This document shows, in pieces, positions 8,421 through 18,861 of a DNA stretch of 64,000 bases. The notes beneath the pieces are model-generated. The model saw nothing but the letters and a program-made list of their open reading frames with translations, had not been told where the DNA came from and searched no databases. The stretch's first letter is position 1; each line of letters starts with the position of its first letter. Location: the NCBI GenBank assembly GCA_009664345.1, contig CP043547.1, positions 1,984,001 to 2,048,000 on the forward strand, read 5' to 3'. A program made the position numbers and the translations under genes. This DNA is from Planctomycetales bacterium 10988. Its GTDB lineage: Bacteria > Planctomycetota > Planctomycetia > Pirellulales > Pb10988.

Positions 8421-9707
8421 ATGGGGAAAATGGATTTCCGATTTCGAGAGTTTCTCGCGGCATTAGCCGCCGTAGGACTCGCAGGCACTGCGGCCTTGGC
8501 CCAACAGCCTGCTACGAGTGGTCAGTATGGTTATGCTGCTCAGTCGTCACAGGGGGTCTACCGCACCAGCTCGGCCTTGCTGGGCGATAGCTGTGAAACC
8601 TGCGGTCCTGTCGATGAATGTGGTGTTTGCGAAGAAGATATTTATGGATGCGATCCTGAAGTAGGATGTGATCCTTGTATTGGATGCGATCCTTGTAGCA
8701 GCTGCGATACCTGCTACTTGGCCGGTCCCGATGAAGCCTGGTCGCTGATGGGCGACTCGGATGCTCCGTTCACCGTCGGTGGATGGATTCAAGCCGGTTA
8801 TCATGATGGCAGCACCACGCTGTTCAATGATCGTCCGGATGAAATCAACCTGCATCAAGCTTGGGCTTACATCGAACGCGTTGCCGATGGTAGCTGCGGA
8901 CTTGACTTCGGTTTCCGTTTCGATGCCATGTACGGGATCGACGGTACCGATACGCAAGCCTTCGGGAATGTGCCCGGTCGTTGGGATTATCTCAACGGTT
9001 TCGATCACGGACCACAATCTTGGGCTTTACCCCAAGCTTACGTCGAAGCCGCTTACGGAGATTTGTCCGTCATCGCTGGTCACTTCTACACCCTCATCGG
9101 GTACGAAGTGGTGACCGCTCCGGATAACTTCTTCTACAGCCATGCTCTGACCATGTACAATGCAGAGCCCTTCACCCACACTGGTGCCCTCGCGACCTAC
9201 TCCGCTTCCGATGATTTGACCATCTATGGTGGTTACACCTTCGGTTGGGATACTGGTTTCGATGACTTCAACGGGGATGCCAGCAGCTTCCTCGGTGGTG
9301 CCAGCTACAGTGTCACCGAAGATGTCGCTTTGACCTACATCTTGACCGCCGGCGACTTCGGCTGGCGTGGAGAAGGTTACTCCCACAGTGTCGTTGCTGA
9401 CTGGAGTGTCACGGACAACCTGAACTATGTCATTCAAAGTGACTTGGTCAGAGCCGATGAGTTTGATGCCGTTGGCGTCAACCAGTACTTGTTCTACTCG
9501 ATCACCGACTGCTTGGCTGTTGGGGCTCGTGGCGAATGGTTCAAATCCGACGGGGTTTCTTTCTACGAAATCACCTACGGTGTGAACTACAGCCCGATTG
9601 CCAACATGACGATTCGACCTGAATATCGTCACCAATGGAGTCCTACCGACGCTGCTGACTTCGCTGATAACGATGTCTTCGGTGTTGACGCTTATGTGAC
9701 CTTCTAA
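8421..9707 (+). CDS. Outer-membrane beta-barrel porin with Cys-rich N-terminal segment
   Basis: Probable outer-membrane channel of the BBP2/OmpL-like group common in planctomycetes. The protein (428 residues) has a signal peptide (hydrophobic run about 11-26, cleavage likely after ALAQ). Next comes an unusual segment at about 58-98 with 11 cysteines, spaced as CxxC pairs and a GCDPC-type repeat. The barrel follows (about 115-428): alternating strands rich in aromatic residues, short Asp/Gly turns, and a final strand ending in VDAYVTF, the terminal-Phe signature recognised by BAM. Strand motifs include GGWIQAGYHDG and DFGFRFDAMYGIDG. AGGAG lies at 8414-8418; either the ATG at 8421 or the one at 8430 could start, the latter having better spacing. 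A strong terminator follows, so it is monocistronic. What it transports cannot be read from the sequence. Confidence 0.8.
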   Translation: MGKMDFRFREFLAALAAVGLAGTAALAQQPATSGQYGYAAQSSQGVYRTSSALLGDSCETCGPVDECGVCEEDIYGCDPEVGCDPCIGCDPCSSCDTCYLAGPDEAWSLMGDSDAPFTVGGWIQAGYHDGSTTLFNDRPDEINLHQAWAYIERVADGSCGLDFGFRFDAMYGIDGTDTQAFGNVPGRWDYLNGFDHGPQSWALPQAYVEAAYGDLSVIAGHFYTLIGYEVVTAPDNFFYSHALTMYNAEPFTHTGALATYSASDDLTIYGGYTFGWDTGFDDFNGDASSFLGGASYSVTEDVALTYILTAGDFGWRGEGYSHSVVADWSVTDNLNYVIQSDLVRADEFDAVGVNQYLFYSITDCLAVGARGEWFKSDGVSFYEITYGVNYSPIANMTIRPEYRHQWSPTDAADFADNDVFGVDAYVTF

Positions 9708-9746
9708 GCTCTTCTCGCCCAAAGAAGAACGACATAAAAGGTTATG

Positions 9747-9792
9747 CCTCCTCTTTCGCAACTTGCGGAAGAGGAGGTTTTTTTATTTTTTT
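9747..9792 (+). terminator. Strong intrinsic terminator after porin
   Basis: CCTCCTCTT (9747-9755) pairs with AAGAGGAGG (9769-9777), extended by CGC/GCG inside, and is followed by a run of seven T and then a second T-run. Confidence 0.92.
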
Positions 9793-10014
9793 CATCCCTT
9801 CTTCATCGAGAGCAGGAACGATTTGCTGGTTTCCCTGTTTCTCGAACTCTTCAAAAGTCATTTCTGTCTGCTACTGAAGCGTGCATCCGTGCGTAATTGC
9901 TATGCAGCTTTCTGAGCATTCCTCTTGAAAAACAGACGCCCCAGAAAAGAACTATTTTTTTAAGTCATTTTAAAACAACCACTTAAAAAGAATAATTCCA
10001 TTTAGAATCATTTC

Positions 10015-10031
10015 TTGGCACTTCACTTGCG
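10015..10031 (+). promoter_or_regulatory. Sigma-54 (RpoN) -24/-12 promoter
   Basis: TTGGCACTTCACTTGCG matches the consensus TGGCAC-N5-TTGC, with GG and GC exactly 10 bases apart. It points to the PII gene at 10360. The predicted transcript start near 10042 gives a leader of about 318 bases. Nitrogen-regulated PII genes are classic sigma-54 targets, so position and motif agree. RpoN and its activator are not in the window. Confidence 0.75.
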
Positions 10032-10171
10032 ATACATAGAAATCAAGTGAAGTGATTCTTTTTTGGGCCTTGCCTTGATGAAACGGATCACAAACGAGAA
10101 CAAAGAACAAAAAAACATTAGTGTATAACGTGGCCCTTGTGGCCTGTTCCCGTGTTCCCTTGCGTGTGGTT

Positions 10172-10250
10172 TGGCTCTCGCCTGAGCCAGAAGGATGCCC
10201 TTAGCCTGGGTGAGGGTCCCGCCTGAACTCACCTAGGCTCGGGCATTCTT
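10172..10250 (+). promoter_or_regulatory. Two stable hairpins in the PII leader
   Basis: Hairpin A pairs TGGCTC (10172-10177) with GAGCCA (10184-10189) around a six-base loop. Hairpin B is much larger: 10191-10200 pairs with 10241-10250 over ten base pairs including one G-U, then AGCCTGGGTGAG (10203-10214) pairs with CTCACCTAGGCT (10228-10239) with one G-U, leaving a 13-base loop. Both lie inside the leader that the sigma-54 promoter would produce but upstream of the sigma-70 start. No U-run follows hairpin B, so simple termination is unlikely. A riboswitch, an RNA-processing site or an operator are open options. Confidence 0.5.
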
Positions 10251-10258
10251 CAGAACTC

Positions 10259-10288
10259 TTGAGGATGATGAATTCTTCGCGTTATAAT
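10259..10288 (+). promoter_or_regulatory. Sigma-70-type promoter for PII gene
   Basis: TTGAGG (10259-10264) and a perfect TATAAT (10283-10288) are 18 bases apart. The predicted start lies about 65 bases before the PII start codon. It would supply basal expression independent of the upstream sigma-54 promoter. Confidence 0.55.
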
Positions 10289-10359
10289 CAACTTACTCGA
10301 TTATGCCTGGAGAGTAACACGTTGGAAAGAGTTTATGTGGGACGCGGAGCGAACGAGAA

Positions 10360-10707
10360 ATGAAACTTATTATCGCGTTAATTCAGCCCTCTAAATTAGA
10401 GGCCGTGAAATCAGCGCTGACGGAAGTCGCCGTCTTTCGATTAACCGTGATGGATGTGCAAGGCTTCGGCCGACAAAAAGGGCACATCGAAGTTTATCGA
10501 GGACATGAGTTCTCTGTGAACTTAGTCAGAAAAGTACAATTACAAATTGCTGTCAATGAAGAGTTCGTTGAACCGACCATTGAAGCAATTATCCGAGGAG
10601 GAAGAAGCGGAGAACACGGTGAGATCGGAGATGGGAAAATCTTTGTTGTTCCCCTTGATGATTGCATCCGAATTCGCACAGGAGAACGAGGAACTGAAGC
10701 GATTTAG
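10360..10707 (+). CDS. PII signal-transduction protein lacking the uridylylation tyrosine
   Basis: PII proteins are trimeric sensors of ATP/ADP and 2-oxoglutarate that control nitrogen uptake and assimilation. The 115-residue protein keeps the core: GFGRQKG before the T-loop, GDGKIFV in the B-loop and RIRTGE at the C-terminus for nucleotide binding. By direct count, position 51, the tyrosine that GlnD uridylylates, is Phe (YRGHEF), whereas the second PII in this window has Tyr51. The B-loop also has a small insertion (GGRSGEHGEIGDGK instead of the usual shorter stretch), and the T-loop is less acidic (NLVRKV). It therefore should sense metabolites but not be switched by GlnD. It stands alone, behind a sigma-54 promoter and structured leader, and is separated from amtB by tatC and manA. 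Confidence 0.93.
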   Translation: MKLIIALIQPSKLEAVKSALTEVAVFRLTVMDVQGFGRQKGHIEVYRGHEFSVNLVRKVQLQIAVNEEFVEPTIEAIIRGGRSGEHGEIGDGKIFVVPLDDCIRIRTGERGTEAI

Positions 10708-10772
10708 TTCCTTGTGAGTCTCTAAAAATTCTCAACAAGCCATCGATCTACCTAGCGCTGGGAGCTGGGGAG

Positions 10773-10833
10773 TAAGGGCATTTCCAGGAAAGCGGACGCT
10801 GTGGGGGCAGCAATTTCCTGGAAATGGCCCTTA
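10773..10833. terminator. Long inverted repeat between PII gene and tatC
   Basis: Arms of about 19 bases (10773-10791 and 10814-10833) match almost perfectly, with one bulged base; the core is GGGCATTTCCAGGAAA. The loop holds a small GCTG/CAGC stem. CACTTTTTATAG follows on the plus strand. The two genes converge here, so it probably ends both transcripts; its length also resembles a dispersed palindromic repeat, though no second copy is in the window. Confidence 0.6.
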
Positions 10834-10982
10834 CACTTTTTATAGACCTTGTCTTCTCAAAGTCCTTTAGATCTAAAACTTGTTTTAATTTGTCAGCAGG
10901 TAGGAATCAAATGATTTCTACCTTTTTTCATGCGCTGACGAAAACAAAGGTGCCACAGGAAAGAACAGGGTTAGATTCCTTC

Positions 10983-12410
10983 TTAAGCGGCGACTTCTTC
11001 GGGAAGTTCGAAGGGGCTGCGGCTTTTGGGGAAATACTGGCACATAATAATCCCAAAAACATAAAGGAAGCAAAGCGGAATCGCCATCAAGAGCATACTG
11101 GTAGGATCGGATGGGGTTAAAATCATCGAAGCAAAAAAGATCACCAGCACCGCCATCCGCCAGTTTTTGATATACGCTTCGACTTCAAAGATTCCGATTC
11201 GATTCAAAAAGAGCATGACTAACGGAAGTTGGAAAGCGATCCCAAAGCCAACTGGCAAAAAGAGCGCGAATCCCATCCACTCGCTGAAACGAATATCCGG
11301 ATTGACGCCAACCCAAGCATTAAAGCTTAGCAGGAAATCAAGCACTGGCTCAAACACAAAGAAGAAGGCCAAGGCGGCCCCTCCCAAAAAGAGCCCGATG
11401 CTGATCGGCAAAAAGACATAAATATAGCGTCGCTCATGCGGATAAAGTCCCGCGGCGACAAATTCCCAAATGAAATAGAAAATCACCGGGCTGACAAGAA
11501 TCCCCCCAAAAATCAGCGATGCCTTTAAATAAACGACAAACATTTCATGGGGGTTCAGCGACGTAATCCGCGAACGTTCGTCATCTTCCTGCAATTGCCA
11601 GAGCAGCAAGCGGGCCATGCGGCTTTTCCGGTCATAAGGGGCAATCAAGTCGGGATAGGCCATCGTCAGCAACTGCCGATTGAGCCGAGCCACTTCAAAG
11701 TTCGGTAAGTCTCCACTTCGCATCTTGGCCAGGGTATCCAATTCACTGGTCAAGGAAACATTTTCAAAATCGTCCACGCGATAGAAGTCGGATTGATGCA
11801 AAATTTTGTTGATCGCCGCGACAAAGGCAGACTTTTGCTCTTTTTTCCATTGATCCGTTTTCACTTCCAACAGGCTTTGCAGTTCCTTGGGGAGTAGGCT
11901 CGCCAAGCGTTTGGCGGGGCTTGCTTCGGAGGCTTTCTTGGCATCACTCAAAGTTTTTGCCAAGGCCGTAAAGTCTTCGATTTCGGACATTTGAAGCACC
12001 GGCTCTTGTCCTGTCAGAATTTCTTTTTGCTGCGAACCTGTTTGCGAATCATGCAGAACCGCAGCCAATTCATAAGGATCGATGTAGCGGAGTTGCGGGC
12101 TGATGCCGTCATTTTGAATGGTCTGCTTATAAAGAGCGATGTCAGAAGTCGTCGCCCCGGCTTGTCGCATTTCTTCCAAACGCTTCTCTAAATTACGTTG
12201 ATCTTGCTCTTGATAATATTCGGTCAGTGCCTTTTCCAAGGGGCTTTTGATGAACTGAACGACGTAGTTTCCTAAAAAAAGTCCGACGACAAAGCCCGCA
12301 ACGAGGGCAATCAAGGCACGAACCAAACAGGTTCGCAACTCTTCGATATGCTCCCCGAAGGACATGGTGGAACTATTAAAAAGGTCGTCAGAATCAGGCG
12401 AAAAGCTCAT
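10983..12410 (-). CDS. tatC: Twin-arginine translocase subunit TatC with large insertion
   Basis: Integral membrane receptor of the Tat pathway, which exports folded proteins. The family has six membrane helices and about 250 residues; this one has 475. It opens with the conserved cytoplasmic segment (SFGEHIEELRTCLVRAL) and helix 1. A hydrophilic insertion of roughly 220 residues follows, rich in Gln, Glu and Lys, where the first periplasmic loop should be. Then come the canonical segments LNPHEMFVVYLKASLIFG, helices 2-6 and the loop FSEWMGFALFLPVGFGIAFQLP. The ATG at 12410 is preferred over a TTG six codons upstream because it gives the usual N-terminus. TatA/B are not in the window. Extended first loops are known from planctomycete TatC proteins; their role is unclear. 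It converges with the PII gene. Confidence 0.93.
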   Translation of the reverse strand: MSFSPDSDDLFNSSTMSFGEHIEELRTCLVRALIALVAGFVVGLFLGNYVVQFIKSPLEKALTEYYQEQDQRNLEKRLEEMRQAGATTSDIALYKQTIQNDGISPQLRYIDPYELAAVLHDSQTGSQQKEILTGQEPVLQMSEIEDFTALAKTLSDAKKASEASPAKRLASLLPKELQSLLEVKTDQWKKEQKSAFVAAINKILHQSDFYRVDDFENVSLTSELDTLAKMRSGDLPNFEVARLNRQLLTMAYPDLIAPYDRKSRMARLLLWQLQEDDERSRITSLNPHEMFVVYLKASLIFGGILVSPVIFYFIWEFVAAGLYPHERRYIYVFLPISIGLFLGGAALAFFFVFEPVLDFLLSFNAWVGVNPDIRFSEWMGFALFLPVGFGIAFQLPLVMLFLNRIGIFEVEAYIKNWRMAVLVIFFASMILTPSDPTSMLLMAIPLCFLYVFGIIMCQYFPKSRSPFELPEEVAA

Positions 12411-12873
12411 GGGTGGTTTCCGTAGCAAGTATTTTTCTCAACAAAGTCGTTGGTTGAGAAGACGTTATGATTGATTGGGCATTTTCTCGCAAGGATCACG
12501 AATTGGCAATCCATCCGGCGAAAAGAAGGCCTGTTGCTTGATTTCTTTCCCAGAATAACCAGTTGCTGCTGGTTTTCGGTTTCTGCTTTAGAATCTACAA
12601 TGTTTCTAGAAGAAACCTACCGCAAGTAGGAAATTTTATTGTCTTTGGTCAAACATCTTTTAAGGAACTCAAAGGCATTTGACCACTGGCCTTTTAGAGT
12701 TCATGGACAAAATTTTCCTTTGTTCTCATTTGCCTAAGAATCTTGCAAGGTTCTGACGGCATTTGACCACCGACTATTATTCTGAACTAGCTTGGCAACT
12801 GTGTGAAGCGGCGGCTTTGCTCAATCTCTAATTTATCGCGAGACACGTTCCGCGGGGAGACCCTCAAGAGATC
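12411..12873. other. Divergent intergenic region tatC/manA
   Basis: About 460 A+T-rich bases between divergent genes with no credible open frame. It contains the paired 13-base repeat listed next and an inverted partial copy, TTGGTCAAA at 12645-12653. TCTAGAAGAAAC near 12606 and short A/T runs are the only other structure. Promoters for both genes must lie here; none is clear. Confidence 0.5.
12674..12770. repeat. Direct repeat GGCATTTGACCAC, two copies 84 bases apart
   Basis: The same 13 bases occur at 12674-12686 and 12758-12770. The 84-base period equals about eight helical turns, so both copies face the same side of the DNA. An inverted 9-base relative lies at 12645. This spacing suits binding sites of a looping regulator of manA or tatC, but chance duplication cannot be excluded. 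Confidence 0.45.
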
Positions 12874-13854
12874 ATGCAGAAACTCTATCCTTTACGCTTT
12901 GAACCGATGTTCCGTCAATATATTTGGGGAGGTCGCAAATTGGGCGATCTGCTCGGCAAGCCGATCGGAGAAGGGGAGCACTACGCCGAAAGCTGGGAAA
13001 TTTGTGATCATGACGAAGATCAAAGTAAGGTCGCTTTCGGTTCGCTGGCCGGTTCCACCTTGGGCTCCTTAGTGAAATCGCAGGGGGAGCAACTGTTTGG
13101 CCGCCATGCCCCGCAAAAACGTTTTCCTTTGTTGCTCAAGTTTTTAGATGCTCAACGAAACTTGAGCGTGCAAGTTCACCCCAACGATGCCCAGGCAGCT
13201 CAGCTCGATCCCCCGGATTTAGGAAAGACCGAAGCTTGGGTCGTCATGCGAGCCGAACCAGGGGCAAAAATCTATGCCGGACTCGAAGCCGGAGTCGATC
13301 AATCGGGTTTGGCTCAAGCGGTCGAAGAGGGAAAAAGCGAAGAATGCCTGGCCTCCTTCGAACCGAAAGAAGGCGATTGTGCATTCCTGACTGCCGGCAC
13401 GGTGCATGCCATCGGCGAAGGATTGGTCATTGCTGAAATTCAACAAGCCAGCGATGTTACCTATCGTCTGTATGACTGGAATCGAGTCGGAACCGATGGC
13501 AAGCCGCGGCCTTTACATATCGAACAAGGTCTGAAAGTCATTGACTATGAACGTGGTCCGGTCACTGCCCAAACGCCGAAACCGCTGGAAGGGTCGCCTG
13601 CCGAACGGCTGGTCGAATGCGATAAATTTATCTTGAATCGTTGGAAGATCGACGAGCCGGTTTCGATTGGGGGTTCCGATTGTTTTCATATTGTTTCGGT
13701 ACTCGCAGGCAGTGTTGAAGTTGAAGGCGATCCGAGTGGCGAGTCGCTGGAGCTTGCTAATTCGATGTTGATTCCGGCCTGCTGTGGGGAAGTGAAGATC
13801 ACCCCGAAAGAGCCTTCCATCTTGATGCATGTTCATTTGCCTATCGATCCGTAA
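12874..13854 (+). CDS. manA: Class I mannose-6-phosphate isomerase
   Basis: Zinc-dependent cupin enzyme that interconverts fructose-6-phosphate and mannose-6-phosphate, feeding mannose sugars for envelope glycans. The 326-residue protein is of the short bacterial class (about 315-330). Zinc ligands are visible: Gln and His in VQVHPND (about 96-102), Glu in KTEAW (about 114-118) and His in AGTVHAIG (about 170-177). The conserved RLYDWNR segment is also present. The ATG at 12874 yields MQKLYPLRFEP, a typical N-terminus. It is divergent from tatC and 90 bases ahead of amtB on the same strand, though a functional link to ammonium transport is not expected. Confidence 0.92.
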   Translation: MQKLYPLRFEPMFRQYIWGGRKLGDLLGKPIGEGEHYAESWEICDHDEDQSKVAFGSLAGSTLGSLVKSQGEQLFGRHAPQKRFPLLLKFLDAQRNLSVQVHPNDAQAAQLDPPDLGKTEAWVVMRAEPGAKIYAGLEAGVDQSGLAQAVEEGKSEECLASFEPKEGDCAFLTAGTVHAIGEGLVIAEIQQASDVTYRLYDWNRVGTDGKPRPLHIEQGLKVIDYERGPVTAQTPKPLEGSPAERLVECDKFILNRWKIDEPVSIGGSDCFHIVSVLAGSVEVEGDPSGESLELANSMLIPACCGEVKITPKEPSILMHVHLPIDP

Positions 13855-13944
13855 TCCATTGTCTAAAGATTCGTGCCATTCCAACTATTTTAATGAAGCT
13901 CAATTTTACTTCTTCTATTCTCCTTTTTCTGCTGCTGAAGATCG

Positions 13945-15462
13945 GTGGGTTGCTCTGTGGTGAACGTAGTTTCGTCGTCCTCTCTTTTTCACACTTTGAA
14001 TTCAACTCGGTATGCTCTGTGCTTTCTCCTCGTAGTTTTCTGCTGGAGCCTTGGAACAACCAGTAGTCTCGCCCAGCAATTTCCTCCCAAAGGGGATGAA
14101 ACCTTGACGGAAGATTCTACGGAAGTAGGGCTTGAAGGAAATGAAGGAACAGAAGCCTTTCGTCAAGAACCTTCGGCAAATGAAAAGATCAATCACGGCG
14201 ACCATGCTTGGGTGTTGATCGCCTCGGCCTTGGTGATGTTGATGACCGCACCGGGTTTGGCCCTGTTTTATTCGGGGTTGGTCCGGAAGAAAAATGTCTT
14301 GGCGACCATGATGCAATGCCTCGTTTTGCTCAGTTTGATGAGTATCATCTGGGCGGTGATCGGCTATTCCTTGGCCTTTGGTTCGCCGGGTTGGGTCTGG
14401 GGAGGCTTTGACTATTTCCTTCTTCAGAATGTGCAGCCGCACTGGGACCCGGAAGTGGGACAAGTAATTCCGATGGTCGGCGAAATCCCCCGCATGACGC
14501 ATTTACTCTTTCATGGAATGTTCTTTGTCATCGCTCCGGCCCTGATTTGTGGGGCCTTTGCCGAACGAATGCGATTTTCCGCGATGATTTTTTTCTCGCT
14601 CGGCTATGGAATCTTCGTTTATTGTCCTATTTGCCATTGGTTTTGGGGCAATGGTTTTCTACACTATGGAGTTCCCCATGCGTTGTTGGGCGGATCGTTG
14701 GATTTTGCCGGGGGAACGGTCGTTCATCTCAGTTCGGGGACGAGTGCCCTGGTCTGTGCCATGGTCTTAGGGAAGCGGCTCGGTTTCGGTCAGATGGCCA
14801 TGCCACCGCATAACTTGACCTATACTGCTTTAGGGGCTTCGCTCCTATGGTTCGGCTGGTTTGGATTCAATGCGGGAAGTGCCTTTCGGGCGGATGTCTT
14901 GGCTTCCCATGCGATGCTGGTGACGCATCTTTCCGCCTCGGCGGGAGCGTTGACTTGGGTCCTTTTTGATTTCCATTATCGCCGAAAACCGAGTATTCTA
15001 GGTACTTGTACCGGAGCGGTAGCGGGATTGGTCAGCATCACCCCGGCGGCTGGTTATGTGCTGCCACTTTCGGCGATGGCGTTCGGAGTTTGTGGAACGG
15101 TTGCCTGCTATTGGTCCTGTACCTGGCTGAAACGTCAGATTGGCTACGATGATTCTCTGGATGTCTTCGGCGTGCATGGAGTCGCGGGACTCGTCGGTGC
15201 TCTGTTGACGGGAGTTTTTGCCTCGCAGGCGGTCGTCGGACAAGCGGAACCACTGGGAATGATCGATGATTTCGCGGCTGGGGCTTGGCTGGTCCTGGCT
15301 CAATTGGTTTCCGCTTTGATCGCCATGGGATTTAGCGTGGTCGTATCTTATTTGTTGCTTAAGGGACTGGATTTAACCGTGGGTCTCCGGGTTTCCCAAG
15401 AAGAGGAAAATCGCGGACTAGACGTCAGCCAGCACGGTGAAGAAGGCTATATTATGGTATAA
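13945..15462 (+). CDS. amtB: Ammonium transporter Amt
   Basis: Trimeric inner-membrane channel for ammonium uptake. The protein has a predicted signal peptide (hydrophobic stretch near 26-44, cleavage near SLAQQ), as E. coli AmtB does, then a short acidic periplasmic stretch and eleven membrane helices. Landmarks are WVLIASALVMLMTAPG at helix 1, the pore histidines in GTVVHLSSGTSALV and FGVHGVAGLVGALLTG, and WFGWFGFNAGSA between them. The start is uncertain: GTG at 13945, 13957 or 13960 all fit and no ATG is in frame before the signal peptide. It is followed 156 bases later by a Tyr51 PII protein and then glnD. PII proteins of the GlnK type plug Amt pores under ammonium excess, so this gene pair is a regulatory unit. 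Confidence 0.94.
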   Translation: MGCSVVNVVSSSSLFHTLNSTRYALCFLLVVFCWSLGTTSSLAQQFPPKGDETLTEDSTEVGLEGNEGTEAFRQEPSANEKINHGDHAWVLIASALVMLMTAPGLALFYSGLVRKKNVLATMMQCLVLLSLMSIIWAVIGYSLAFGSPGWVWGGFDYFLLQNVQPHWDPEVGQVIPMVGEIPRMTHLLFHGMFFVIAPALICGAFAERMRFSAMIFFSLGYGIFVYCPICHWFWGNGFLHYGVPHALLGGSLDFAGGTVVHLSSGTSALVCAMVLGKRLGFGQMAMPPHNLTYTALGASLLWFGWFGFNAGSAFRADVLASHAMLVTHLSASAGALTWVLFDFHYRRKPSILGTCTGAVAGLVSITPAAGYVLPLSAMAFGVCGTVACYWSCTWLKRQIGYDDSLDVFGVHGVAGLVGALLTGVFASQAVVGQAEPLGMIDDFAAGAWLVLAQLVSALIAMGFSVVVSYLLLKGLDLTVGLRVSQEEENRGLDVSQHGEEGYIMV

Positions 15463-15618
15463 TTGTCTAGAAGCTATTTCAAAAAGGGTCCGGCAATCGC
15501 CGAGCCGAGCGGCTTGAAATGGTTTCCTGTTAGGGGAGTTGCGCTGGCGTCAATCTTCGCAACTTCCGCCGTGCTGTGAATCAAGTACGGTTTCGAATCA
15601 ATGCAAGGGATTCTGTTC

Positions 15619-15957
15619 ATGAAAAAATTAGAAGCCATCGTTCGTCATTTTAAACTGGAGGATGTGAAAAACGCCCTTCATGAATTGGACATTCACGGAA
15701 TGACCGTGGTGGAAGTCCGCGGATTTGGCCGTCAGAAAGGCCAAACGGAATCTTATCGTGGGGCCGAATATTCGGTCGATTTCGTCCCGAAAGTCAAATT
15801 GGAAATCGTCGTTCCGGAAGAAAAAATCAAAGGAGCGGTCGATGCTATTTTACGCAATGCCCAAACGGGGCAAATCGGTGACGGAAAAATCTTCATCAGC
15901 GATTTAAGCGAGGCGATTCGTATTCGCACCGGAGAAACCGGCTCGGACGCGCTTTAA
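15619..15957 (+). CDS. glnK: PII protein GlnK/GlnB with Tyr51
   Basis: Canonical 112-residue PII sensor, starting [17 protein letters not shown]. An upstream in-frame ATG at 15601 exists, but the one at 15619 gives the conserved start and has AAGGGA about ten bases before it. Tyr51, the uridylylation site, is present in [10 protein letters not shown]. The B-loop [10 protein letters not shown] and C-terminal RIRTGETG nucleotide-binding segments are intact. Position between amtB and glnD indicates that GlnD modifies it and that it gates AmtB. The contrast with the Phe51 paralogue at 10360 suggests a division of labour between a covalently switched and a purely ligand-driven PII. Confidence 0.95.
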
Positions 15958-15993
15958 CTCTTCGACCAGCCGACCTCCAGATCGGACCAATGA

Positions 15994-16057
15994 TCGGGGA
16001 GGAGTACGAAACTTGAAACGCCTTGTTGTTCGACTAGTTTCAATGCTCACTCCCCGA
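15994..16057 (+). terminator. Hairpin between PII gene and glnD
   Basis: TCGGGGAG (15994-16001) pairs with CTCCCCGA (16050-16057), and GAAACT pairs with AGTTTC inside. No U-run follows. It may terminate weakly or stabilise the upstream PII mRNA relative to glnD, which would suit their different protein needs. Confidence 0.4.
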
Positions 16058-16176
16058 GAAGATGTCTGCCGGAAAGCCTGAAAGCTTCACATGTAAATAA
16101 TTTCAACCCCAAGCAGATATCTTCCACAACCTTTCTTCGACAACCTCTGTACTTTCAACCAACGGTACAAAATCTT

Positions 16177-18861
16177 ATGATCCAGGGCACAAATCTCCCT
16201 TCTCGAATCCTGGAGGCCAAGGAGGACCTTCTTGCCGCGCGAGAAAAACTCCGAAAACAACATCAGGATGGTTCTCCAGGCATTCAAGTTTGCAATGCTT
16301 GGACGGATACCATCGACAAATTGATTGATGAACTGTTCCGAGCGGCGGTCGATGACTTGGCCGATGGAGAGGGACCGGACCTTCATCAGCATGTCGCTTT
16401 GATCGCCCATGGCGGTTACGGGCGTCGCGAGATGGCCCCGTTCTCGGACGTGGACCTCATGATCCTGCATACCCCGGCTGTCCAAGAAAAGATCGGACCG
16501 CTGGCAGGGCGGATTTTGCGGGATGTCGGCGATACCGGGATGATCGTCGGGCATAGCGTGCGAACGACGCGACAAGCCCTTGCCTTGACTGCTCAAGACG
16601 CTTCGATCTGCACGTCCTTGATGGAAAGCCGCCTGCTGACGGGAAACTCAGATCTCTTTAGCCACTTCATGAAGCGATTCCGCTTCCAGGTACAACGGCG
16701 ATTCTCCCGAATTTACGCGCAAATCATCGAAGCCCGCGAGAAGGAACAAAAGGAATATGGCGAAACGGTCTATCTTTTAGAACCGAATATCAAGCGATCT
16801 CGGGGGGGATTGCGGGACTTGCAGCTTATTCGCTGGATCGGCTTTGCCAAGCATGGAACCCCGGAACCCGACCAACTCCGCATGTGGGGAGCTTTGAGCA
16901 AGAGCGATCAACAAAAGCTGACCGAGGCCCGAGATTTTCTGTTGCATTTACGCAATGAACTGCATTTTCATGCCAAACGCGGACAAGATATGCTCCTACG
17001 TGATGAGCAATGGCGGATCGCGGAAGCCTTTGGGTTTAAAGAAATCACTGGGATTCCCATTGATGGATTTGTGGAAAATCGTCTCCCAGTCGAAGAATTC
17101 ATGGGGGAATATTTCCGCCATACTCAATCGATTAAAACAATCTCCGAACGCTTCGTCGAATCGCTTCGACCTGGTCGCTGGAAACGAACGCTTTTTGCTT
17201 TGATTTTCAGTCACCAAGTCGAAGGGGATTTCTTTGTCAGTCCCTTTGACATTCGGGCAACCAAGCGGGGCCTTCCCAAAATCAAACGTGATTTGACTGA
17301 AGTCATGCGACTGGCGGACCTAGCGAGTCTGTACGATAAGCCCATTGATTTTCATACGACCGAAGCCATTCGCGAGGCCGTTCCCAAGCTTTCCGATCAT
17401 CCCGATCCGCTGGTGGCCAAGCGTTTTCTTTCGATCCTCGATCATCCTGCCCACTTGGCTTCGTTACTGCGAGAATTGCATCAAATCGGGGTATTGGAAA
17501 AGATTATTCCACAAATGGCCCACGCCCGGAGCCTGATGCAATTCAATCAGTTTCATAAGTACACTGTCGATGAACATACCCTCTTGGCGGTGCAGCGGGC
17601 GACCGAATTCCGTGATGATCCCGACCTGTTGGGGAAAGTCTATCGGGCCTTGGATCAGAAGTGGCTCTTGCATTTGGCCTTGATTCTGCATGACTTGGGA
17701 AAAGGCTTCGAGGAAGATCATAGCATCGTCGGAGCGAAGTTTGCCGAGAAAATCGCCAGGCGATTGCGACTGACGGCGGAAGATAGTGAAACGCTCGTCT
17801 TCTTGGTTCGCTATCATTTGCAGATGACGCACTATGCCTTTTGGCGAGACATTTCCGATCCCGATTTAATCGTGAAATTTGCCGTGCAGGTCGGTTCGCC
17901 GGAACGTTTGCAACTGCTATTCTTATTGAGCGCGGCGGATATGATGGCCGTCGGCCCGGAAGTCTGGAACGGCTGGAAGGCCCAACTCCTGTACGATCTC
18001 TACAACAAAACGATGGAACATCTCTCGGCAGGCAAGAACGAATGGGCCGCCCAGGAAGAGATCGAATTTCTCCGCCAGCCGATTCGCGATTGTTTTTCGG
18101 AAGAATGGGACGAATGGTACGAACGCCAACTCAAGGCCTTCTCCGCAAGTCAATTGGGGAGCGAATCCCCGGATCGAATTCATCAACAGCTCAAACAACT
18201 CCGCCAGCTTGATCCAGAAGAAATTGTGATCGAACATCGGTGGCTTGCCGAGCAATCCGCTTGGGAAATCTTCTTGGCAACACGAGACCTCGTTCGCGAT
18301 GGGTTGGTTCACCGTGTCACGGGGGCTTTTGCCAGCAAAGGCATCGGCGTTCTGCGGGCACAAGTGGGCCGCTTCAAGGAAGGAATCACTCTCGATCGGT
18401 ATTGGGTCAGCGATCCCGATTACCAAGGCGAACCCCCGGAACACCGCAAAGAAGAGGTGACCGAAGCGATCAAGAAGGCGATCTACAATGACGATCCCCC
18501 CAAGGTTTCCCAACGTTTGCGGATTGGACAACGCCCCACGCGTACCGCCTTGCCGACGCTTCCCGCTCAGGTAAAAATCGACAACCACACTTGCGAAACG
18601 CATACGATTATTGAAATCTTCGCGACGGATCGTCCGGGCTTGCTCTATACGATTTCCCGAGCGTTAAATGATTTGAAGCTCTTAATCTCGGTCGCCAAGA
18701 TCGGGACGCATCTCGATCAGGCGGTCGATGTCTTCTATGTTTCCGATACGCAAGGAAATCGCATTGAAGACCAGGAAGAAATCAAGTCCATCAAAACTTA
18801 CATTGAAGAAGCAATTTCGGCTTTTGAGGAAGAAGCCCGTTCGAAGTTGACTTCGTACTAA
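16177..18861 (+). CDS. glnD: Bifunctional uridylyltransferase/uridylyl-removing enzyme GlnD
   Basis: Glutamine sensor that uridylylates PII at Tyr51 when glutamine is low and removes UMP when it is high. At 894 residues it has the full family length. The nucleotidyltransferase site is GGYGRREMAPFSDVDLM (about 79-96), with the metal-binding Asp pair in SDVDL. The HD hydrolase domain has DEHTLLAVQRATEF (about 463) and ILHDLGKG (about 502-509). Two C-terminal ACT domains lie at about 700-780 and 808-885 (the second with TDRPGLLYTISRAL), the glutamine-binding part. All active-site residues expected by eye are present. It is the third gene of the amtB-PII-glnD set; PII at 15619 is the obvious substrate, the Phe51 PII cannot be. 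Confidence 0.96.
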   Translation: MIQGTNLPSRILEAKEDLLAAREKLRKQHQDGSPGIQVCNAWTDTIDKLIDELFRAAVDDLADGEGPDLHQHVALIAHGGYGRREMAPFSDVDLMILHTPAVQEKIGPLAGRILRDVGDTGMIVGHSVRTTRQALALTAQDASICTSLMESRLLTGNSDLFSHFMKRFRFQVQRRFSRIYAQIIEAREKEQKEYGETVYLLEPNIKRSRGGLRDLQLIRWIGFAKHGTPEPDQLRMWGALSKSDQQKLTEARDFLLHLRNELHFHAKRGQDMLLRDEQWRIAEAFGFKEITGIPIDGFVENRLPVEEFMGEYFRHTQSIKTISERFVESLRPGRWKRTLFALIFSHQVEGDFFVSPFDIRATKRGLPKIKRDLTEVMRLADLASLYDKPIDFHTTEAIREAVPKLSDHPDPLVAKRFLSILDHPAHLASLLRELHQIGVLEKIIPQMAHARSLMQFNQFHKYTVDEHTLLAVQRATEFRDDPDLLGKVYRALDQKWLLHLALILHDLGKGFEEDHSIVGAKFAEKIARRLRLTAEDSETLVFLVRYHLQMTHYAFWRDISDPDLIVKFAVQVGSPERLQLLFLLSAADMMAVGPEVWNGWKAQLLYDLYNKTMEHLSAGKNEWAAQEEIEFLRQPIRDCFSEEWDEWYERQLKAFSASQLGSESPDRIHQQLKQLRQLDPEEIVIEHRWLAEQSAWEIFLATRDLVRDGLVHRVTGAFASKGIGVLRAQVGRFKEGITLDRYWVSDPDYQGEPPEHRKEEVTEAIKKAIYNDDPPKVSQRLRIGQRPTRTALPTLPAQVKIDNHTCETHTIIEIFATDRPGLLYTISRALNDLKLLISVAKIGTHLDQAVDVFYVSDTQGNRIEDQEEIKSIKTYIEEAISAFEEEARSKLTSY

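What the first reader, a model, noticed from the sequence alone, without database searches (positions are those of the whole stretch)
10360..10707. PII paralogue with Phe51 beside a Tyr51 copy and GlnD
Direct count puts Phe at residue 51, where GlnD adds UMP in normal PII proteins; the copy at 15619 has Tyr51. The window thus holds a switched PII beside its modifying enzyme and a nearby unswitched PII with an altered B-loop. This suggests two arms of nitrogen sensing, one covalent and one purely ligand-driven. PII variants without this Tyr are known in other bacteria (for example phospho-Ser forms), but this pairing in one window deserves a look.
Basis: partly seen in the sequence, partly recalled or inferred. 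Interest (0 to 1): 0.62.

Follow-up and report, generated by a model that had tools for sequence, protein, structure and literature searches.

The report
Nitrogen sensor without its uridylylation site
A nitrogen-sensing PII protein found across one group of planctomycete bacteria has lost the tyrosine that the enzyme GlnD would tag, while a sister protein beside GlnD keeps it, and a conserved hairpin sequence of no known RNA family lies in front of its gene.

Summary
In detail: 10360-10707 encodes a 115-aa PII with Phe51, and amt-glnB(Tyr51)-glnD lie 3-8 kb downstream. It is not a sequencing error: 53 of 56 order-mates have the orthologue (71-88% identical); over the 54 copies residue 51 is F28 I17 V3 L3 Y3, while ligand-site residues and Arg47 are nearly invariant. 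Orthologues in other classes keep Tyr51. Over 118 genomes Tyr51 goes with GlnD having no separate GlnB-type PII (31 of 33); with a GlnB-type PII, or without GlnD, the residue is nearly always hydrophobic (81 of 85). Independent events are few, so this rule is suggestive only. Best reading: a GlnK-like PII released from GlnD and driven by ATP/ADP/2-oxoglutarate, probably gating an ammonium channel (target inferred). The longer B-loop is older than the loss. PII proteins without Tyr51 are known, so this is a variant of a known kind. The freshest result lies outside the given coordinates: a covarying hairpin (10186-10250) upstream of this PII in 35 of 53 order-mates, repeated about 20 times after amt in one genome with its loop ACCGCCTG constant while the stems vary; no Rfam match. 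Its function is unknown.

The parts
10360..10707 (+). GlnK-like PII with Phe51 (the finding)
   Evidence: P-II Pfam 91.7 bits; Phe51 by count; orthologue in 53 of 56 order-mates
10186..10250 (+). conserved hairpin element (candidate structured RNA) 109 bp upstream of the PII start; stem-loop with CCGCC in the apical loop
   Evidence: RNA fold z -5.5; covariation; covariance-model match 64 bits; no Rfam match
10173..10188 (+). small preceding hairpin P1, present in about half of the copies
   Evidence: all five pairs formed in 25 of 53 copies, 0.45 expected from shuffled 5' arms
8421..9710 (+). BBP2 porin, upstream neighbour kept in many order-mates
   Evidence: Pfam PF07642 231.9 bits
13945..15462 (+). 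ammonium transporter of the GlnB-GlnD cluster (a different Amt clade from those beside the Phe51-type PII)
   Evidence: PF00909 375.8 bits; Amt tree
15619..15957 (+). GlnB-type PII with Tyr51 (ORF opens at 15601)
   Evidence: Pfam 112.4 bits; sequence
16177..18861 (+). GlnD, PII uridylyltransferase/uridylyl-removing enzyme
   Evidence: TIGR01693 611 bits, over cut-off; nucleotidyltransferase motif GGYGRREMAPFSDVD and HD motif HDLGKG read (motifs recalled)

Best explanation
The protein is a GlnK-like PII trimer that descends from a Tyr51 PII which was the only PII candidate for GlnD in other planctomycete classes. In the window's class GlnD either works beside a separate GlnB-type PII or is absent, and this paralogue then lost Tyr51, which was replaced only by hydrophobic residues (F, I, V, L, M). 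Shown here: the loss, its clade-wide spread, the conserved ligand-site residues and Arg47, and the presence of GlnD and a Tyr51 GlnB in the same genomes. Inferred: it senses ATP/ADP and 2-oxoglutarate without covalent modification and blocks an ammonium channel through its T-loop when nitrogen is plentiful, while GlnB-GlnD is the covalent, glutamine-sensing arm. The likely channels in this genome are the Amt at C1:4623538 or the one at C1:2720126, not the window's own Amt. Its expression is probably tied to a conserved hairpin element upstream (function unknown).
For: Residue 51 over 54 copies F28 I17 V3 L3 Y3, against K58 54/54, T29 54/54, R104 and R106 54/54, GDGK 54/54, Q39 53/54, R47 53/54 (roles recalled from E. 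coli numbering). Control: 57 of 60 other PII regions of the same genomes have Tyr at 51, and 39 of 39 GlnB-type (one of the three exceptions is the broken G053 orthologue). Orthologues of other classes are Tyr51 with the same long B-loop, several beside GlnD. Over 118 genomes: GlnD+ without GlnB-type, 31 Tyr of 33; GlnD+ with GlnB-type, 3 Tyr of 65; GlnD- with GlnB-type, 0 of 3; neither, 1 of 17. G060, the one genome of 32 outgroup genomes with a GlnB-type PII, has Phe51 in its long-B-loop PII. Among 148 class genomes all 73 with GlnD are among the 75 with a GlnB-type PII. An Amt is the nearest upstream neighbour in 11 of 53 order loci, and own Amts OWN2 and OWN3 fall in those Amt clades. E. 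coli GlnK Tyr51Ala still binds and leaves AmtB (PMC4274968, passages).
Against: Tyr51 persists in G040, G026 and G016 although GlnB-type PII and GlnD are there; G022 and G049 have Phe51 with GlnD but no GlnB-type PII found (G049's GlnD starts 184 nt from a contig end, G022 is unexplained). The phylogeny gives only 1 well-supported (5 in all) independent pairs, so no significance, and 82 of 140 inner branches of the PII tree are unresolved. In this genome no Amt adjoins the PII; in 25 of 53 order loci neither an Amt nor the porin was found within 2.5 kb upstream. Glu62 of E. coli PII is Gln in 45 of 54. Target, ligand affinity and modification state were not measured.
Confidence: 0.6

Rival explanations
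1. The PII acts on a soluble enzyme, for instance glutamine synthetase, rather than on an ammonium channel; its stand-alone position reflects this.
For: Its best sequence match among solved structures is Methanosarcina mazei GlnK1 (E 1.6e-36, entry 8tge), which binds glutamine synthetase through its T-loops (PMC10651883, passages). In 25 of 53 order loci neither Amt nor porin lies within 2.5 kb upstream.
Against: Amt is the nearest upstream neighbour in 11 of 53 order loci and the Amts concerned form clades of their own; Arg47, the T-loop tip residue that enters the AmtB pore, is kept in 53 of 54. Similarity to GlnK1 is over the whole PII fold and says little on the target.
Confidence: 0.2
2. 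Loss of Tyr51 is functionally neutral drift: the residue was released from constraint, and nothing changed in signalling because ligand control dominates anyway.
For: E. coli GlnK Tyr51Ala is nearly wild type in AmtB control (PMC4274968 passages; PMC4285133 passages). At least 30 changes among residues at this site on the tree.
Against: The site is not free: among the own copy and 53 order-mates only F, I, V, L and Y occur, M once more in a wider draw, and no polar or charged residue; spirochaete and other distant GlnKs by contrast show E, T, H, A, S. So a hydrophobic contact is kept.
Confidence: 0.25
3. GlnD modifies this PII at another residue, for instance Tyr46.
For: Tyr46 is present in the window copy and in 44 of 54.
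Against: It is Phe in 10 of 54; Tyr46 is also present in E. coli PII, where Tyr51 is the site (recalled; review PMC4285133, passages).
Confidence: 0.04
4. The upstream hairpin is only a transcription terminator or a DNA-level repeat and has nothing to do with PII regulation.
For: Terminator-like shape, U-rich 3' side in part of the copies (22 of 53 with at least 5 T in the 10 nt closing the stem); promoter-like matches lie just downstream in the window (10259-10288) and in the second own copy.
Against: The porin has its own terminator-like hairpin at 9746-9778. The apical loop CCGCC is identical in 53 of 53 aligned copies and in 21 of 21 and 9 of 9 tandem copies while stems vary, which a plain terminator does not need. 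It was found only at amt/PII loci in the sequence searched.
Confidence: 0.4

Closest known systems
GlnK of the glnK-amtB pair (E. coli and others)
   Same: PII fold, R47 at the T-loop tip, ligand residues, Amt next to the gene in part of the relatives
   Different: no Tyr51, longer B-loop, often stands alone; modification by GlnD at 51 impossible
PII proteins without Tyr51: Archaeoglobus fulgidus PII (PMC10714827, passage) and Arabidopsis PII
   Same: residue 51 not Tyr; Arabidopsis has Phe aligned to Tyr51 of Aquifex PII
   Different: no GlnD in those organisms (archaea: PMC10714827; plants: recalled); here GlnD and a Tyr51 PII are in the same genome
Methanosarcina mazei GlnK1
   Same: best solved-structure match by sequence, lengthened B-loop
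   Different: has Tyr51 (PMC10714827, passage) and binds glutamine synthetase (PMC10651883, passages)
glnA / glutamine riboswitch candidates (PMC2864571, passages)
   Same: structured RNA beside PII and ammonium transporter genes, sometimes in tandem
   Different: no match of our element to any Rfam 15 family; single hairpin, not a junction (shape of glnA recalled)
CsrB/RsmZ-type RNAs, arrays of hairpins with a constant loop that bind a protein (recalled)
   Same: many hairpins with a constant loop and varying stems
   Different: loop ACCGCCTG instead of GGA; beside amt/PII genes; no binding protein known

Membership tests
PII (P-II, PF00543) | P-II domain over the curated cut-off | tested here: met
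   91.7 bits, cut-off 25
PII (P-II, PF00543) | ferredoxin-like PII fold | tested here: met
   AlphaFold2 model, Foldseek top 50 rows are PII/GlnK entries
PII (P-II, PF00543) | ATP and 2-oxoglutarate site residues | tested here: met
   T29, G37, Q39, K58, GDGK, both C-terminal Arg kept (roles recalled); Glu62 is Gln here; binding itself not measured
GlnD-modified PII (GlnB/GlnK of proteobacteria) | Tyr at residue 51 | tested here: not met
   Phe51; 51 of 54 copies not Tyr
GlnD-modified PII (GlnB/GlnK of proteobacteria) | GlnD in the genome | tested here: met
   GlnD 16177-18861; 46 of 57 genomes over the cut-off, further partial ones
phospho-Ser49 PII (cyanobacteria) | Ser at residue 49 | tested here: not met
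   His49 in 49 of 54, Arg or Lys in the rest
GlnK (amt-linked PII) | amt adjacent | tested here: inconclusive
   not in this genome; nearest upstream neighbour in 11 of 53 order loci
GlnK (amt-linked PII) | binds and blocks an ammonium channel | not testable with these tools
   needs protein work
known RNA family for the upstream hairpin | match to an Rfam 15 model | tested here: not met
   no match at the element with E up to 1 in window 9700-16300, L084, L053, L037, L108, L395 12800-15300
Rhodopirellula-1 motif (PMC2864571 table) | same consensus | not testable with these tools
   only the table row was seen, with no Rfam number; its alignment is not in the text

The most novel reading that the evidence does not exclude
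This planctomycete order runs nitrogen sensing on two PII arms: a GlnB-GlnD covalent arm, and a Tyr51-less PII plus its ammonium channel controlled instead through a new structured RNA. The RNA is a hairpin, single or in arrays of up to about 20, whose constant ACCGCCTG loop is presented on varying stems between amt and the PII gene, and which would be read by a loop-binding protein or act as a sponge or attenuator.
Probability: 0.3. Interest if true: 0.75.

Novelty: new variant of a known kind. Interest (0 to 1): 0.52.

Why it matters
It offers a natural experiment on what PII uridylylation is for: the same protein with and without its target tyrosine, sorted by whether GlnD has another PII. 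If the upstream hairpin is a real regulator, it would be a new RNA element tied to ammonium uptake in planctomycetes, where nitrogen control is little studied (the searches gave no paper on PII control in this group beyond listings for anammox and other bacteria).

Tried and rejected
Sequencing error or pseudogene: rejected, 51 of 54 copies lack Tyr and the rest of the protein is highly conserved. One order-mate (G053) does carry a degenerate copy with a broken T-loop (L089/L256).

Linking the long B-loop to the loss of Tyr51: rejected, Tyr51 orthologues in other classes have it too.

Viral relatives of the PII: none. Plasmid relatives: 99 records, all under 60% identity, not followed.

A conserved small protein gene (sP36-like) beside the PII: all-against-all comparison of small ORFs around the gene gave shadow frames of the PII, traces of neighbouring genes and the upstream nucleotide element, no convincing separate small gene. 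sP36 itself was not searched for; I did not have its sequence. PMC10714827 (passages) reports sP36 in Isosphaeraceae without GlnD, which agrees with the GlnD-less family f111 here; the copy in G409 is identical to that of Tautonia sociabilis.

Phylogenetic test of the Tyr51/GlnB rule: not significant, too few independent events.

Full report
What is there. The ORF at 10360-10707 encodes a 115-residue PII protein whose residue 51 is Phe. About 3 to 8 kb downstream lie an ammonium transporter (13945), a second PII with Tyr51 (15619) and GlnD (16177-18861). The genome (6.65 Mb, one contig) has five PII genes and four ammonium transporters. A predicted structure has the PII fold.

Conservation. 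A search of 57 genomes (own and 56 of the same order) found an orthologue at 71-88% identity in 53 of the 56, with a gap down to 59% before the next paralogues. Across the 54 copies residue 51 is F28 I17 V3 L3 Y3, while K58, T29, the GDGK motif and both C-terminal arginines are the same in 54 of 54, Q39 and R47 in 53 of 54. Ser49 is absent too (His in 49 of 54), so the cyanobacterial phosphorylation site is missing as well. As a control I read 60 other PII regions from the same genomes: 57 have Tyr at this place, and 39 of 39 of GlnB type. The exceptions are L246 (His), L265 (Val) and L256, which is the broken orthologue of G053.

Where the tyrosine went. In other classes of the phylum orthologues carry Tyr51 with an otherwise equal T-loop (YRGHEYTVNLLRKV) and the same long B-loop; several lie next to GlnD or an Amt. 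In the window's class the residue is F, I, V, L or M, with few Tyr. On a tree of 143 PII sequences, with column 51 left out, at least 6 changes between Tyr and not-Tyr and 30 changes among residues are needed; many branches are unresolved. Tyr in G040, G026 and G016 looks like reversion.

A rule for the tyrosine. Of 32 outgroup genomes with this PII, GlnD was found in 32 (23 over the cut-off, 6 at 491-516 bits, 3 as fragments); only G060 has a GlnB-type PII (next to its GlnD), and its long-B-loop PII, a long branch of the tree, is the only one of the 32 with Phe51. In 148 genomes of the window's class GlnD was found in 73 and a GlnB-type PII in 75, the 73 being among the 75. The families without either include f111, whose member G409 has the same PII gene as Tautonia sociabilis. 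Combining the 118 genomes whose copy I had read: GlnD without GlnB-type, 31 Tyr of 33; GlnD with GlnB-type, 3 of 65; GlnB-type alone, 0 of 3; neither, 1 of 17. For some genomes with two copies only one was read (for example G415 and G409). The pattern reads as: the tyrosine is kept where GlnD has no other PII. But the tree gives only 5 independent pairs (1 on well-supported branches), so there is no statistical proof.

Mechanism. That this PII cannot be uridylylated at residue 51 follows from its sequence. That it still senses ATP, ADP and 2-oxoglutarate is inferred from conserved residues. In E. coli a Tyr51Ala GlnK still binds and leaves AmtB with nitrogen status and binds somewhat faster after ammonium shock (PMC4274968, passages; PMC4285133, passages), so a ligand-only GlnK works. 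The target is not known. An Amt is the nearest upstream neighbour in 11 of 53 order loci, the BBP2 porin in 15, neither within 2.5 kb in 25, and 2 were cut short. In an Amt tree two own transporters (C1:2720126 and C1:4623538) group with the Amts that sit before this PII in relatives, while the window's Amt belongs to another group. I therefore think this PII lost its neighbour but may still serve those channels.

A hairpin in front of the gene. A 650-bp gap separates the porin from the PII. In it, 10186-10250 matches the upstream regions of the same PII in relatives: 55 of 139 upstream regions examined, all of the order or of named relatives that group with it. The window copy folds at -52.8 kcal/mol, z -5.5, none of 200 shuffles as low. 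On 48 sequences (53 less five near-copies) 14 of 17 predicted pairs have changes on both sides; with a 23-pair structure of my own 90.4% of cells pair, 79 cells have double changes against 22.4 in shuffles, and slid versions reach at most 61.6% paired. The structure was read from the same alignment, which favours it. A second, smaller hairpin before it forms in 25 of 53 copies. CCGCC in the apical loop is invariant in the 53 aligned copies.

Where the hairpin occurs. With a covariance model it lies on the PII's strand 69-460 nt upstream of the start in 35 of 53 order loci, in 11 of 11 where an Amt comes first. It is repeated: 9 copies in L084 and 4 in L079 between Amt and PII, and 20 copies (21 with a weak one) in L395 directly after an Amt (77% identical to that of L084) whose PII gene lies 21 kb away. 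In those arrays the stems differ while the loop keeps CCGCC in 21 of 21 and 9 of 9. In 439,704 bases of the own genome there are two clear copies: this one, and one between another Amt and the second GlnB-type PII, with a loop that lacks CCGCC. None was found in 60 GlnB-type PII regions of 0.8-3.3 kb, in 39 loci of other families of the class and of other classes, or in 50 loci of other phyla. No Rfam family matches it in the stretches scanned. A motif called Rhodopirellula-1 is listed in PMC2864571 (one table row seen) and could not be compared. Constant loop on varying stems suggests that a protein or RNA reads the loop; a terminator or DNA element remains possible, since promoter-like matches lie downstream of the hairpin in both own copies.

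Known or new. PII proteins without Tyr51 are known (A. fulgidus, PMC10714827 passage; Arabidopsis has Phe there). A Tyr-less paralogue kept across an order beside a Tyr51 GlnB and GlnD I did not find in the papers searched, a library that lacks most subscription journals. I file it as a new variant of a known kind.

Noticed in passing
window 10186-10250: Conserved covarying hairpin upstream of the PII, no Rfam match; described in the report as the most novel lead.
   Followed up: partly
L395:13029-15074 (-): About 20 tandem hairpins with constant ACCGCCTG loop directly after an ammonium transporter gene in G005; 9 copies in L084:6853-7809.
   Followed up: partly
L089 / L256 (G053): Degenerate orthologue of this PII with a broken T-loop and B-loop.
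   Followed up: no
L005 (G000:C1:3171230-3171514): Fifth PII gene of the genome, short C-terminus and T-loop DYSNSEY; no nitrogen gene seen beside it.
   Followed up: no
L004 (G000:C1:2251931): Lone PII with Tyr51 and long B-loop; a divergent ammonium transporter lies about 3.6 kb away.
   Followed up: no
L125-L150: GlnKs of spirochaetes, Phycisphaerae, Omnitrophota and others beside amt show many residues at 51 (I, M, V, E, T, A, H), so Tyr51-less GlnKs are common there.
   Followed up: no
window 9746-9778: Strong terminator-like hairpin after the BBP2 porin gene.
   Followed up: no
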